A DNA stretch of 51,154 nt from Flavobacteriaceae bacterium (lineage in GTDB: Bacteria; Bacteroidota; Bacteroidia; Flavobacteriales; Flavobacteriaceae), in the NCBI GenBank assembly GCA_016649715.1, contig JAENXC010000022.1:1-51154 (forward strand). The letters are read 5' to 3'. This document shows, one piece after another, positions 34,437-51,154 of the stretch. The position numbers and the translations under genes were made by a program. Under the pieces are notes generated by a model. It worked only from the letters and a program-made list of their open reading frames with translations. It was not told the origin of the DNA and ran no database searches. Numbering within the stretch: position 1 is the stretch's first letter; each line of letters begins with the position of its first letter.

Positions 34437-35369
34437 TTAATTATTGGTTTTGTAAAGCACAAAGTTAAAGCTCACCGTTATTTCGTCACCAACTTTTATA
34501 GTTCCAAGAAACATGACAGGTGGCTCCATGTTAAAGTCTGTCATCTTTAATTTTTTGGAAACCGTTAGTTGCAAATCGCCATTAGGTAATGCTTTTCCGT
34601 GTGCCGAAATAGGAACTGACTTACTCACACCGGCCATGCTAAGCTTACCAATAGTTTCCATACTAACGACATTGGATTCATTTATTTTTACCACTGCATT
34701 ACTGAAGGTATATATTATATATGGGTACTCATCAGACTTAAAGGTTTCGTAGGTTTTATTGTCCATTTTTTTCCCTTCGTCACTTTTAATGCCCTTTACA
34801 GGAATTTTAATTTCTGCATCCTTTATTGAGGCAAGCATATTGTCTTTTATTTGAAATGAGCCCTTGCCCTCGATTTTAGTAATATTTGATTCCCAACCAT
34901 GCAATGTGGAAGTACCTACGATTGTGGCCTTCACCGATTTCATGGAAAAGTCAGCATACACCAATTCTGCTGGCTTTTCAACAGTTGTTGTTTTGGTTTT
35001 CTCAATAACTGATGGCTCAGTGTTATCAACAGTTGTTGTTTTGGTCTTCTCAATGACTACTGGCTTAGTGTTATCAGTTGTTGTTTTGGTCTTCTCAATG
35101 ACTACTGGCTTAGTGTTATCAGTTGTTGTTTTGGTCTTCTCAATAACAGCTGGTTTAGTGTTATCAGTTGTTATTGTTTCGGGCTCATCAATAACTGTTC
35201 CTTCAGAACTATCTATATACTTTGTGGTTTCAGAAGTAATCCCTGAAATTGAATCAGCTATTTGTGTCTCTTCCTGCGCTTTGTCAGTTTTAGGATTTTT
35301 GCATTGCACAAATACAATAGATATTAAAATACCTAATGCAACGAGTAATCTAGAATATTTAGTCATCAT
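34437..35369 (-). CDS. YceI-domain lipoprotein with Thr/Lys-rich tandem repeats
   Basis: 310 aa. Lipoprotein signal ending FVQCKN (Cys about 23). A linker of about 90 residues carries four or more copies of a 15-residue unit (KPVVIEKTKTTTDNT), encoded by 45-48-bp repeats. The C-terminal YceI lipocalin-like domain starts near residue 145: YADFSMKSVKATIVGTSTLH, GWESNITKIEGKGSF and LQLTVSKKLKMTDFNMEPP. YceI domains bind isoprenoid-type lipids. The repeats act as a stalk between membrane anchor and domain. Repeat number is likely to vary between strains. Confidence 0.85.
   Translation of the reverse strand: MMTKYSRLLVALGILISIVFVQCKNPKTDKAQEETQIADSISGITSETTKYIDSSEGTVIDEPETITTDNTKPAVIEKTKTTTDNTKPVVIEKTKTTTDNTKPVVIEKTKTTTVDNTEPSVIEKTKTTTVEKPAELVYADFSMKSVKATIVGTSTLHGWESNITKIEGKGSFQIKDNMLASIKDAEIKIPVKGIKSDEGKKMDNKTYETFKSDEYPYIIYTFSNAVVKINESNVVSMETIGKLSMAGVSKSVPISAHGKALPNGDLQLTVSKKLKMTDFNMEPPVMFLGTIKVGDEITVSFNFVLYKTNN
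34984..35166. repeat. 45-bp tandem repeat inside the YceI lipoprotein gene
   Basis: Four units begin at 34984, 35032, 35077 and 35122 (one of 48 bp, three of 45 bp), each starting GTTGTTGTTTTGGT on the plus strand, with a partial fifth at 35167. The two middle units are almost identical, pointing to recent expansion. In frame: 15 or 16 residues per unit. Confidence 0.9.
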
Positions 35370-45929: not shown

Positions 45930-45973
45930 AAAAAGTGGAGGTTATTTGGTGGGTAAAGTTAGTTTATTAGCGG

Positions 45974-46037
45974 ATTGTTTGATTTTTGGATTGTTCGATT
46001 GTTCGATTGTTGAATTGTTGAATCGGTGAATTGATGA
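45974..46037. repeat. 8-bp tandem repeat, eight units
   Basis: ATTGTTTG, ATTTTTGG, ATTGTTCG, ATTGTTCG, ATTGTTGA, ATTGTTGA, ATCGGTGA and ATTGATGA follow one another without gaps. Units change in pairs, which suggests stepwise duplication. It lies in the spacer between the DedA and HutD genes. Confidence 0.85.
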
Positions 46038-47983: not shown

Positions 47984-48004
47984 TGGTAAGTTTATTTATA
48001 AATT

Positions 48005-48955
48005 ATGGAATTAATCATTGGATATATTGGCTTTATTATTTCTGCTTATTCTGTTATAGCTAACGATGTTATTCAAACCCTGGGCACTTTTATTTCATCG
48101 AATTTTAAAGTGAAATGGTGGTGGCTCTGGCTTTTTGCCATTAGTATTTTATCAATAACTTTATTTTATGGATGGTTTACAAATGATGGGGATGTGTCTT
48201 ACGGCAGATTGAGCAATATTCCGTTTCCAGAAACATTGAAATGGTGGTTCCTTTTAGCGCCCATTGGCCTATTGGTTATAACACGTTTCGGAATTCCGGT
48301 AAGTACAACTTTTATGATTTTAAGTGTATTTTCTTCTGGGCAGATGGTAGAAAAAATGATTTTGAAATCAGTTTATGGGTATGCTCTTGCCTTTGTTTTT
48401 GCCATTTTAGTATATGTTGTTATTTCAAAACAAATAGAAACCAAGCATTCATTGGATAAGTTAGATAAACAGAAAAAGAAGCATTATTGGTTGGTAGCGC
48501 AATGGTTTTCAACAGGGTTTTTGTGGTCACAATGGCTAATTCAGGATTTTGCAAATATTTTCGTTTTTCTTCCAAGAAAACTTTCCATAGAGCAGCTCAT
48601 TATCTCATTAACCTGTATTCTTCTAATTATGGCATATATTTTTAGGAGAAGAGGTGGTAAAATTCAAGAAATAGTCAATCAAAAATCAAATACCAAGAAT
48701 ATTCGTTCTGCCACAATTATTGATTTAATTTATGGGGTCTTTTTATTTGTTTTTGGTAATCTCAACTCAATTCCAATGAGTACTACATGGGTTTTTATTG
48801 GTATTCTGGCTGGTAGAGAATTGGCGATCACTTATTTATTGCATAAGCCAAAAATGAAATCCACTTACATCATTATTGCCAAAGATTTCGGTAAAGTGAA
48901 TATAGGTCTTGCAGTGAGCATCGTTATTGCTTTTTTGATTCAGTATTTAAAATAA
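48005..48955 (+). CDS. Divergent PiT-type (inorganic phosphate transporter superfamily) permease
   Basis: 316 aa, 8-10 predicted TM segments. Two inverted-repeat signatures of the PiT fold are visible in degenerate form: VIANDVIQTLGTFISSNF near residue 20 with GIPVSTTFMILSVFSSGQ near 100, and QDFANIFVFLPRKLS near 180 with IPMSTTWVFIGILAGRELA near 260. In PiT transporters these read GANDVANAxGT and VSTTHxxxG. The exact ligand residues differ, so the substrate is uncertain. No regulator (PhoU-like) is adjacent. A truncated DUF6266 gene abuts its 3' end. Confidence 0.65.
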   Translation: MELIIGYIGFIISAYSVIANDVIQTLGTFISSNFKVKWWWLWLFAISILSITLFYGWFTNDGDVSYGRLSNIPFPETLKWWFLLAPIGLLVITRFGIPVSTTFMILSVFSSGQMVEKMILKSVYGYALAFVFAILVYVVISKQIETKHSLDKLDKQKKKHYWLVAQWFSTGFLWSQWLIQDFANIFVFLPRKLSIEQLIISLTCILLIMAYIFRRRGGKIQEIVNQKSNTKNIRSATIIDLIYGVFLFVFGNLNSIPMSTTWVFIGILAGRELAITYLLHKPKMKSTYIIIAKDFGKVNIGLAVSIVIAFLIQYLK

Positions 48956-49190
48956 GCATACTGTCTAATTGACTACTGAAATACGCGCCCGCCACCTCTT
49001 TGATGGGGTTCAGAAATTCCACTACCATTGCGAACTTAGCTCGTTGTTCAAGCTGTCCAGCGGTACCGGTTCTGTTAGGTTTCTTTCTTGGGCGTTTGCG
49101 AAGTACATCGATTCCGCGCCAATTGGCACCTACTACGTTTCCCACTCGTCCCGAGAAGGAACCGAAAATTCCGTCATTGAATTTTCCCAT
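48924..49190 (-). pseudogene. Truncated DUF6266 family gene
   Basis: From the ATG at 49190: MGKFNDGIFGSFSGRVGNVV, then GANWRGIDVLRKRPRKKPNR and LEQRAKFAMVVEFLNPIKEV. This is the start of DUF6266, a multicopy Bacteroidota family usually about 200 aa. After YFSSQ (about 48965) the frame runs into the complement of the PiT gene's end and stops at 48924, giving 88 codons. So the C-terminal half is missing, with a junction around 48956-48965. Function of the family is unknown. Confidence 0.8.
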
Positions 49191-49260
49191 TTTGTTTAAA
49201 TTTAAGTTTAACATTCAGTTATTAATTCAGAGCCAAAGTATTGCGCAGTTCGCTGTGCTC

Positions 49261-49450
49261 CAAAAACATGCGCCATCTTGCCTTAAAATGCATCAAATTG
49301 GTTTAAACTGCTATTTTTTAACCACATATAGCGTTAAATGAATAATACTGACAGCTTTTACATCCTTACTGCATCTTTTGCATACGGATGGAACGATTTG
49401 CATAAAATTGCAGTGATTTGCTATCATTTGCACATTTTTGCACACAATTG
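49261..49450. repeat. 190-bp tract of TG steps at exact 10-bp intervals
   Basis: Of the 19 decamers from 49261 to 49450, 15 end in TG (mostly TTG or ATG), always in the same phase, and most of the following decamers begin with C or CA. From 49371 to 49450 eight in a row do so. Each TG is preceded by a short A/T run. Period 10 is not a multiple of 3, so coding cannot explain it. The tract lies 70-260 bp upstream of the DUF6266 start codon on that gene's promoter side. Confidence 0.75.
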
Positions 49451-49492
49451 GCAGCAGCTTTGAACCCGACATTTGCGTTTTTTTTGTTGCAT

Positions 49493-49556
49493 TTGTTCGA
49501 GTGTTGTTCGAGTGTTGTTCGCGAATTGTTCGCGAAATGGTACTTTTTGCGAACAA
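49493..49556. repeat. Four 11-bp iteron-like direct repeats plus one inverted copy
   Basis: TTGTTCGAGTG (49493-49503), TTGTTCGAGTG (49504-49514), TTGTTCGCGAA (49515-49525) and TTGTTCGCGAA (49526-49536) are contiguous. GCGAACAA (49549-49556) is the inverted core. The last two units also create two TTCGCGAA palindromes 11 bp apart. Confidence 0.85.
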
Positions 49557-49671
49557 TGGGCGAATTAGAGTAAAAGAAGGGTTGAGGAACTGTGCGAATG
49601 ACACGGGCGGGACGCCTGCGACAGCGTTTATAATTACCTCAGGATTAAACCCATATTGGATTTTAATGGAC

Positions 49672-49771
49672 TACCTTTGCAAAAATCTTATTTAACTTTA
49701 GCTATTAAGTATCCCTTCGCACTACTTCCGCGAATTGCTGAGGCTTTCTTTTTTAAGCCTTTATTTTTCTT
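49672..49771 (+). promoter_or_regulatory. -7 box, short leader and terminator-like hairpin before the methyltransferase
   Basis: TACCTTTG at 49672-49679 fits TAnnTTTG. About 62 bp later AGGCTT (49741-49746) and AAGCCT (49755-49760) form a stem followed by TTATTTTTCTT. A transcript from this box would stop after about 85-90 nt unless it reads through to the methyltransferase ATG at 49844. Either a small RNA or an attenuator. Confidence 0.4.
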
Positions 49772-49843
49772 ATCAAGCCCCCCAAGGCATAGCGGAATCA
49801 GTAAAAAATGCTTCTTCTTTTTATGCAAAAGCAAAACCAGACC

Positions 49844-50926
49844 ATGAGTACAGATATACAAATAAACAAGCCAGAACCAATTACTTCAATTAAAGAAGTA
49901 GCGTTGTTTGATAGCGCTGCAGCTATTGAGTTTACCATTAAAACATTGGAAGCTGATAAACCTGTGTTGATAACAGAATTTTACGGCGACGGCTTGTTAC
50001 TGCTCAAGGAGTTGAAAACGCATCTCAAAAGAAAGCTGCCCAACAAGACTTTTCAGGAGCAACGCGAGTATCGGGCGGAATACCACAGGCTGTCCAATCT
50101 TGTTTTAATAGAAATTGTAGCGCATATATTGATAGTAAAAAAAGCCCCTGCAATTGGTTGGTTGGAAAAACTATACCCGGAAACTGAAGATTTCTTTTTG
50201 TCCTTCCCCCAAATACAAGGCCTGAACAGTGCTTGGCAGTGGTACAAAAACGGGATTTCCATTCCTGTATTGCGAAATAAAATACACCCCTATTACGGCA
50301 CCTATTTCCCTACACGTTTTGATCATTTGGAACTATTTGACCAATGGTTAAAACGCTATACGGGGCCTAAAAAAACAGCGATAGACGTTGGGGTGGGCAG
50401 TGGCATACTAGCCTTTCAAATGGTTAAACACGGGTTTCAAAAGGTTTTTGGTACAGATACAAACCCCAATGCCATTGTGGGCTTAACCGAGTTTATGGGC
50501 AACACAAAGTTGTCGCGAAAGATAGAATTGGACCTAGGGCATCTTTTTGGGAAGTTTGAAAAGCAGACCGAGCTCATTGTTTTTAATCCGCCGTGGTTAC
50601 CCGAGTCGCATACCTCAGAGAACATGGACCAAGCCATTTATTACGACAAAAACCTATTCCCGGATTTTTTTGCGGCAGCAAAGTCACGCCTTTTGCCAGA
50701 GGGAAAACTAGTGGTTCTCTTTTCCAATTTGGCACAAATAACAAAGGTGGCCAAAGAGCACCCCATAGAAAAGGAACTGGCCGAAGGCGGAAGGTTCCAG
50801 TTGGAAAAATGTTATAAGAAAACAGTAAAAGCGGCTTCTGATAAAACAAAGCGCGATGCGCATTGGCGGGCTTTGGAAGAAGTAGAGCTTTGGGAGCTGA
50901 CACACAACCCGTGCGCAAGGGGATGA
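49844..50926 (+). CDS. Class I SAM-dependent methyltransferase with NPPW motif
   Basis: 360 aa from the ATG at 49844 (MSTDIQINKPEPITSIKEVA); an ATG at 49808 in the same frame adds 12 unlikely residues. The N-terminal helical domain of about 170 residues is followed by the methyltransferase core: AIDVGVGSGILAFQMVKHG (motif I), KVFGTDTNPNAIVG, and IVFNPPWLPESHTSENM (motif IV, NPPW). NPPY/W is typical of N-methylation of amide or amino groups (PrmB/PrmC-like or small-molecule). The last residues (NPCARG) are encoded by a dispersed repeat. Substrate unknown. Confidence 0.8.
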   Translation: MSTDIQINKPEPITSIKEVALFDSAAAIEFTIKTLEADKPVLITEFYGDGLLLLKELKTHLKRKLPNKTFQEQREYRAEYHRLSNLVLIEIVAHILIVKKAPAIGWLEKLYPETEDFFLSFPQIQGLNSAWQWYKNGISIPVLRNKIHPYYGTYFPTRFDHLELFDQWLKRYTGPKKTAIDVGVGSGILAFQMVKHGFQKVFGTDTNPNAIVGLTEFMGNTKLSRKIELDLGHLFGKFEKQTELIVFNPPWLPESHTSENMDQAIYYDKNLFPDFFAAAKSRLLPEGKLVVLFSNLAQITKVAKEHPIEKELAEGGRFQLEKCYKKTVKAASDKTKRDAHWRALEEVELWELTHNPCARG

Positions 50927-51154
50927 GATTAACTACGTTGAATCTTCGATTTCCTCCTTCGTCGGAATGACAAAATCGTATTCAGGTCTACTTGTCATTT
51001 CGACCAGAGGGAGAAATCCCATCAGAGTGAGTTTTCGAGTTTTGAATAGAGGCTGGAGACTCAGGTGGATGGGATTAACTACGTTGAATCTTCGATTTCC
51101 TCCTTCGTCGGAATGACAAATAGCCCGTGCGCAAGTGTGTGAGATTCCTCCTTC
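50907..51154. repeat. Dispersed repeat block, direct copies at 50927 and 51073
   Basis: A 48-bp sequence (50927-50974) recurs exactly at 51073-51120, starting GATTAACTACGTTGAATCTT and ending CGGAATGACAAA. Between them a related GTCATTTCGACCAGAGGGAG unit appears inverted. CCCGTGCGCAAG occurs at 50908 and again near 51123. These GTCATTCCGAC-type repeats are common in flavobacterial genomes. They overlap the methyltransferase stop and run off the edge. Confidence 0.85.

What the first reader, a model, noticed from the sequence alone, without database searches (positions are those of the whole stretch)
49261..49450. Helically phased TG-step tract upstream of a DUF6266 gene
In 15 of 19 successive decamers the dinucleotide TG occupies the same two positions, usually as (A/T)TG followed by C, with short A/T tracts between. 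Random sequence would place TG there about once in 16. A period of exactly 10 bp matches one helical turn, and alternating A/T tracts with flexible TG/CA steps are the recipe for intrinsic curvature or for a protein array binding one face of the helix. It is not coding (10 is not a multiple of 3) and is not a simple repeat, since the intervening bases vary. I know of no described element of this form next to DUF6266.
Basis: partly seen in the sequence, partly recalled or inferred. Interest (0 to 1): 0.72.

Follow-up and report, generated by a model that had tools for sequence, protein, structure and literature searches.

The report
Ten-base docking array for chain-forming regulator
A stretch of bacterial DNA with a short signal repeated exactly every ten bases looks like a docking strip on which a small DNA-binding protein lines up in a chain beside one gene's switch; related bacteria keep such strips next to the same gene and usually next to a gene for such a protein, while the copy in this window looks like a broken leftover.

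Summary
In detail: TG holds one phase in 15 of 19 decamers (49261-49450); the best elsewhere in 656 kb of this genome is 8 of 19. It is a family trait. Of 80 related DUF6266 loci, 54 pass a strict test for a 10-bp array. The shared signal is CA on the gene strand, mostly GTCA, sometimes GACA or TGCA. Steps from one G(T/A)CA to the next are 10 bp in 216 of 254 cases and 11 bp in one: a protein lattice rather than intrinsic curvature.

71 of the 80 loci hold a small HTH_17 gene. Its profile matches BldC first among solved structures. BldC binds direct repeats head-to-tail and its Arg30 reads a TG-type step. The residue matching BldC Lys26 covaries with the base before CA: K/R goes with GACA in 5 of 6 loci, other residues in 0 of 44, though only 2-3 changes are independent.

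Best reading: an operator on which a BldC/Xis-type protein assembles beside the DUF6266 promoter. The window copy is probably a relic: its DUF6266 breaks off after about 70 residues and no HTH_17 partner is left. Binding and filament formation are inferred.

The parts
49261..49450 (-). 10-bp array, 19 decamers; CA on the gene (minus) strand in phase in 15 of 19 (TG on the plus strand); -260 to -70 relative to the ATG
49233..49240 (-). TACTTTGG, resembling the Bacteroidota -7 element (TAnnTTTG), 20 nt after TTTG
   Evidence: sequence; a TTG-N18..22-TAnnTT pair in 58 of 80 related loci against 9.4% of mononucleotide shuffles; consensus from passages. Not an experimentally mapped promoter
49261..49264 (-). 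TTTG, resembling the -33 element; it directly follows the last unit of the array in gene orientation
48924..49190 (-). DUF6266 remnant; homologous start at ATG 49190; 73% identical to residues 1-70 of the L155 protein (49190-48978), then an unrelated tail and stop
49496..49564 (-). second array in 11-bp steps: on the gene strand four CGAA (49529, 49518, 49507, 49496 as lowest bases), beyond two TTCG (49550-49553, 49561-49564)
   Evidence: (TRF 49493-49532 period 11)

Best explanation
The tract is (or was) the operator of a small winged-helix HTH_17 protein of the BldC/Xis type. One protomer sits on each 10-bp unit; the conserved CA/TG step is the YpG step read by the conserved arginine (BldC Arg30), with an AT-rich stretch beside it. 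Protomers line up head-to-tail, with one direction, towards the DUF6266 promoter, forming a nucleoprotein filament of about 5 to 18 units that regulates DUF6266; silencing is a little more likely than activation because the array often ends at the -33-like element. Shown by computation: exact 10-bp lattice, recurrence at DUF6266 loci, linkage to an HTH_17 gene, covariation of a base-contacting residue with the unit. Inferred: binding, filament, sign of regulation. The window copy is probably a non-functional relic: DUF6266 is cut and no HTH_17 gene of this type remains in the window.
For: 54 of 80 named loci have a 10-bp array by a strict test, 0 of 40 class-A DUF6266 loci. G(T/A)CA to next: 10 bp in 216 of 254. 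HTH_17 gene in 71 of 80 loci, 46 convergent just downstream, although this genome has only 4 HTH_17 genes over the cut-off. HTH profile: best PDB hits 6AMA and 6AMK (BldC on DNA), then RacA. Passages of PMC5859096: BldC binds direct repeats head-to-tail, one helical turn apart on smeA, Arg30 reads YpG, Lys26 is the other base contact, optimised site CAATTCGGACAATTCGGACA. Lys26-position K/R with GACA in 5 of 6, others 0 of 44; GACA loci are not one clade (AU p 0.00056). Ten-bp pairs upstream of the HTH genes themselves: 0 and 1 against 207 upstream of DUF6266.
Against: 7 of the 9 loci with no HTH_17 gene found have a 10-bp array, and 10 of 46 loci with a convergent one fail the strict array test. 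Independent changes in the covariation number only 2 (3 on all branches; sign test cannot be significant), and the Lys26 position was picked after seeing the units. K/R loci L107, L273 and L274 do not show GACA arrays. BldC repeats are 9 bp in the whiI site, here 10. BldC's minor-groove wing residues His46, Arg47, Arg48 are not kept in the profile consensus. The array 3' end is at -46 or -55 to -59 in only 27 of 54 loci; the rest lie between -37 and -183. In 6 loci TG scores above CA on the gene strand. HTH_17-like genes also lie near 12 class-A loci without arrays. For the window itself no cognate protein is known.
Confidence: 0.75

Rival explanations
1. The array is bound by another protein (DUF6266 itself, or a chromosomal factor), and the HTH_17 gene is merely linked.
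For: 7 of 9 loci without a detected HTH_17 gene still have a 10-bp array; a second, 11-bp array at these loci has no known binder.
Against: The recognition-helix residue of the linked HTH_17 protein covaries with the unit, and the same residue contacts bases in BldC.
Confidence: 0.13
2. The tract is selected for intrinsic DNA curvature, without a sequence-specific binder.
For: Phased AT-rich stretches and TG/CA steps in the window.
Against: Exact 10-bp steps, 216 of 254, with 1 of 11 bp; locus-specific but internally uniform units such as GTCATAAGC or GGTCAATCTC; covariation with a protein. No curvature model was run.
Confidence: 0.05
3. A neutral tandem repeat: slippage made the units, mutation blurs them, no function.
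For: Several loci have near-identical units, as after recent expansion (L055, L106, L140); the window copy is decayed.
Against: Recurs before class-B DUF6266 genes and not before class-A ones (54 of 80 and 13 of 35 against 0 of 40); the CA step persists where other positions vary; the unit covaries with a neighbouring protein.
Confidence: 0.05
4. An RNA element of the DUF6266 leader with a 10-nt period.
For: The tract lies on the 5' side of the gene.
Against: The promoter-like pair lies between array and gene in many loci (pair found in 58 of 80 within 110 bases of the start), so the array would not be transcribed from it; no Rfam match in 48000-51154.
Confidence: 0.02

Closest known systems
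BldC of Streptomyces (MerR-like wHTH; PDB 6AMA, 6AMK; PMC5859096, passages only)
   Same: Small wHTH protein without a dimerisation domain; direct repeats about one helical turn apart; directional; conserved arginine for a YpG step; GGACAATT-type unit shared with the K/R loci L122, L144, L150
   Different: BldC regulates many scattered promoters (passages) with 2-4 repeats in the two sites described there; here 5-18 units at exactly 10 bp beside one gene, with the regulator usually encoded nearby; wing residues differ
Xis/Cox/RdfS excisionases (HTH_17 and related wHTH filaments; PMC11963761, passages only)
   Different: Those act at attachment sites of integrases; no integrase was among the neighbour families recurrent in class-B loci (flanks of 1.5-2 kb). 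RdfS showed no consensus motif, while these arrays have clear ones
DUF6266 (PF19781)
   Same: The gene beside the array belongs to it
   Different: The window copy is truncated; only the lower-scoring group (class B here) carries the 10-bp arrays, 0 of 40 high-scoring class-A loci do

Membership tests
BldC family (HTH_17 wHTH on direct repeats) | Small protein that is a HTH_17 wHTH with no MerR-type effector part | tested here: met
   Pfam HTH_17 over cut-off in 7 of 8 proteins scanned, the eighth being of another neighbour family; the 59 partner proteins listed are 49-106 aa; tested in relatives, the window has none
BldC family (HTH_17 wHTH on direct repeats) | Sequence kinship to BldC among solved structures | tested here: met
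   Profile of 28 partners: 6AMA E 1.7e-5, 6AMK 2e-4, RacA 0.0047, no others at E 0.01
BldC family (HTH_17 wHTH on direct repeats) | Arginine equivalent to Arg30 for the YpG contact | tested here: met
   90% or more of 28 aligned partners (column R37 of the first row)
BldC family (HTH_17 wHTH on direct repeats) | Direct repeats about one helical turn apart | tested here: met
   216 of 254 steps are 10 bp; BldC whiI repeats are 9 bp
BldC family (HTH_17 wHTH on direct repeats) | Wing residues His46, Arg47, Arg48 in the minor groove | tested here: not met
   Not kept in the profile consensus aligned to 6AMA; so I say it works like BldC, not that it is BldC
BldC family (HTH_17 wHTH on direct repeats) | Head-to-tail oligomer on DNA | not testable with these tools
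   Needs binding and structure experiments
Xis-type excisionase | wHTH fold of the Xis/Cox class | tested here: inconclusive
Xis-type excisionase | Action with an integrase at an attachment site | not tested
   No integrase seen among recurrent class-B neighbours in 1.5-2 kb flanks; attachment sites not sought
DUF6266 (PF19781) | Match over the curated cut-off, full length | tested here: inconclusive
   48.4 bits against 23.4, but only profile 3-55 of 198: a truncated member
Bacteroidota housekeeping promoter | TTTG (-33) and TAnnTTTG (-7) | tested here: inconclusive
   Window: TTTG-N20-TACTTTGG, one mismatch in the -7; relatives 58 of 80 with a looser TTG-N18..22-TAnnTT, 22 without, among them L155

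The most novel reading that the evidence does not exclude
These promoters carry two adjoining lattices of different pitch: an exact 10-bp one for a BldC-like wHTH filament and an exact 11-bp, partly symmetric CGAA/TTCG one for a second, unknown and perhaps also filament-forming factor. Together they would package roughly 250 bp into a defined chromatin-like structure that switches one gene, and the 10-bp lattice follows a one-residue specificity code (Lys26 position) shared with Streptomyces BldC.
Probability: 0.3. Interest if true: 0.8.

Novelty: new variant of a known kind. Interest (0 to 1): 0.62.

Why it matters
The known sites of BldC/Xis-type proteins are short or degenerate (RdfS: no consensus found, passages of PMC11963761), which makes their DNA choice hard to study. 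Here are dozens of long, clean, directional arrays, most of them near a gene for such a protein. Filament length, pitch and a residue-to-base rule become directly testable, and DUF6266, for which the full-text search found no paper, becomes approachable through its likely regulator.

Tried and rejected
Rfam: nothing in 48000-51154. Literature, open PMC library only: 'DUF6266' 0 papers; HTH_17 + direct repeats + Bacteroidetes 1 unrelated plasmid paper; nucleoprotein filament + excisionase + direct repeats + winged helix + promoter 1 paper, the RdfS one; Flavobacteriaceae + 10-bp + tandem repeats + upstream + helix-turn-helix 0. Defence system: DUF6266 has no PADLOC or NCBIfam match at E 0.01; two HTH proteins hit the MADS1 HTH model (PADLOC E 1e-7 to 3e-8; NCBIfam far below its cut-off), taken as shared HTH fold. 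Mobile element: one class-B DUF6266 query gave no match in the plasmid and phage collections and the alignment gave 1 locus in viral contigs; empty sites were not tested. Arrays upstream of the HTH genes: 0 and 1 ten-bp pairs. A curvature model was not run. An A-form-RNA reading of the 11-bp array was considered and not tested.

Rows dropped or not seen: L029 was left out of the per-locus scores; L050, L084 and L085 were fetched but never scored; many places listed without a locus were not fetched (all or most of the class-A ones, some class-C ones). Of 263 relatives the tool kept the best 80. The 80 named loci partly repeat genomes of the genus/family set, so the two sets are not independent. 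In one search, 21 of the 71 loci with an HTH gene were skipped (no scoring array of 5 or more units, or no helix match). One search scanned observed sequence in steps of 10 and shuffles in steps of 20, which favours the observed slightly; the same held for class A. One search used mononucleotide shuffles, four per locus. One search failed part-way; one search was an empty test script. The regular expression misread some recognition helices and was replaced.

Full report
WHAT IS THERE. In window 49261-49450 TG occupies the same two positions in 15 of 19 decamers. A scan of 655,659 bases of the same genome (40 stretches plus the window) found no other 19-decamer stretch with more than 8. The window is a whole contig of 51,154 bp. 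On the minus strand, the strand of the adjoining DUF6266 gene, the units look like nnTGCAAAnn, the shared signal is CA, and the array runs from -260 to -70 relative to the ATG at 49190. Directly after it come TTTG and, 20 nt later, TACTTTGG, resembling the Bacteroidota -33/-7 elements (consensus from passages of PMC6847099 and PMC2483708). Beyond the 10-bp array lies a second one in exact 11-bp steps: four CGAA and two TTCG on the gene strand, 49496-49564.

THE WINDOW COPY IS BROKEN. Its DUF6266 protein matches only Pfam positions 3-55 of 198. It is 73% identical to the L155 protein over residues 1-70 (49190-48978), then runs into an unrelated tail. A search with 71 partner HTH proteins found only one marginal match in the window, E 0.01, 44 kb away. 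The genome has two further DUF6266 genes, on C5 and C31, and four HTH_17 genes over the cut-off, three on C36 and one beside the C31 DUF6266. The genus is probably Aequorivita: the HTH proteins of same-genus loci L015 and L022 recur letter for letter in named Aequorivita loci L146 and L155. That is inference.

A FAMILY TRAIT. DUF6266 hits fall into a high-scoring group (class A, over 260 bits) and lower groups (class B in genus and family; C further out). Upstream spectra in the 9-11.5 bp range exceed all 40 shuffles in 24 of 35 class-B loci and 1 of 35 class-A loci (L009). A unit finder with a strict threshold gives 10-bp arrays in 54 of 80 named loci, 13 of 35 class-B loci, 1 of 21 class-C loci and 0 of 40 class-A loci; 11-bp arrays come out on top in 10, 4, 6 and 0 of them. 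Letters differ by locus: TGTGTCAATA, GTCATAAGC, GGTCAAACGC, GGACAATTnT, TGCAATnG. From one G(T/A)CA to the next is 10 bp in 216 of 254 cases, 20 in 25, 11 in 1, 9 in 2, others in 10. Where a CA array scores (54 loci) it has 5 to 18 units and ends at -46 in 7 loci and at -55 to -59 in 20; the other 27 end between -37 and -183. In 6 loci TG on the gene strand scores higher, in at least four of them because the unit is TGCA; 20 loci have neither (the TGCA remark for L142, L145 and L167 rests, L154 on its likeness to L145). A TTG-N18..22-TAnnTT pair lies within 110 bases of the start in 58 of 80 loci, spacer 20 being the commonest, against 9.4% of 1600 shuffles.

WHY BldC MATTERS. From passages of PMC5859096 (not the whole paper): BldC binds direct repeats head-to-tail with a direction, fills longer sites with one helical turn between protomers, bends the DNA, and makes base contacts with Arg30 and Lys26; Arg30 reads a 5'-YpG-3' step. 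The optimised BldC site contains GGACAATT; the arrays of L122, L144 and L150 are GGGACAaTta and tgGACAATTa.

COVARIATION. For each locus I took the residue that aligns with Lys26 and the base before CA. In the 50 loci where both could be read, K/R occurs in 6: 5 have GACA and one no clear base (L107). The other 44 (41 S, 3 others) never have GACA: 40 have T and 4 have G before CA (Fisher 2.8e-6, which ignores kinship). On the DUF6266 tree GACA changes 3 times, 2 forced by well-supported branches; one clade for the GACA loci is rejected (AU p 0.00056); independent pairs number 2 (3 on all branches), all in the expected direction, too few for significance. I picked the position after seeing the units and then found in the paper that it is a contact residue. 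Outside the scored table, K/R loci L060, L125, L256 and L263 have GGACA units (steps of 11 bp in L263); L269 has scattered GACA; L273 and L274 have none. Non-K/R loci L253, L265, L266 and L267 have no GACA array. L060 and L256 are from one genus.

CONTROLS AND CONTRARY RESULTS. Ten-bp G(T/A)CA pairs: 207 upstream of DUF6266 in 71 loci (43 loci with two or more), against 0 (same strand) and 1 (other strand) upstream of the HTH genes. Against the model: 7 of 9 loci without a detected HTH_17 gene have 10-bp arrays; 10 of 46 with a convergent one fail the strict test; BldC's wing residues are not kept; the general array score of the window tract is only just first in its genome sample.

MECHANISM. 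Most likely (0.75): HTH_17 protomers fill the lattice head-to-tail towards the promoter. Because the lattice often ends at the -33-like element, silencing seems more likely than activation; that is inference. The role of DUF6266 is unknown; its model (pLDDT 88.6) gives mainly fibronectin-III matches, presumably for the C-terminal strands (best Foldseek E 7.6e-4, the only one under 0.001), with a low-confidence glycine-rich N-terminus.

THE 11-BP ARRAY. Three or more CGAA in 11-bp phase occur in 55 of 80 named loci and in 0 of 80 at 10 bp; two or more TTCG at 11 bp in 37; class A 0 of 40 with three or more CGAA. It is also seen in loci with no HTH_17 gene in their 2-kb flanks, such as L063 and L064. 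Its binder is unknown.

VERDICT. A real, recurrent feature: a new variant of a known kind (BldC/Xis-type operator), notable for length, exact pitch, linkage and a readable specificity rule. The window copy itself is probably a relic. Corrections made on checking: the fixed 3' end holds for 27 of 54 loci only, and confidence was lowered from 0.78 to 0.75 for that reason.

Noticed in passing
49496-49564: A second array in exact 11-bp steps (CGAA, then TTCG on the gene strand) beside the 10-bp one; three or more CGAA in 11-bp phase in 55 of 80 related loci. Its binder is unknown.
   Followed up: partly
34981-35197: Tandem repeat of a 45-bp unit, 4.7 copies, inside the window.
   Followed up: no
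45973-46037: 8-bp repeat GATTGTTC/ATTGTTGA, up to 8 copies, between ORFs.
   Followed up: no
50928-51154: A stretch with GATTAACTACGTTGAATCTTCGATTTCCTCCTTCGTCGGAATGACAA occurs twice at the contig end, as if the assembly stopped in a dispersed repeat.
   Followed up: no
L089, L100, L101, L083: More distant DUF6266 loci carry other upstream arrays: 11-bp GCTAACTATAT (L089), CAATGGATATA (L100), CCATATCAANG as a palindrome (L101), and a 9-bp GGCA array (L083).
   Followed up: partly
L142, L145, L155, L167, window 49261-49450: Arrays of TGCA type go with recognition helices holding a cysteine (SKCS in L155, TPSC in L145; none found for L142 and L167); too few to test.
   Followed up: no
L155 DUF6266 model: Predicted DUF6266 fold is fibronectin-III-like in its strand-rich part, with an uncertain glycine-rich N-terminus that is the most conserved part of the alignment.
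   Followed up: partly
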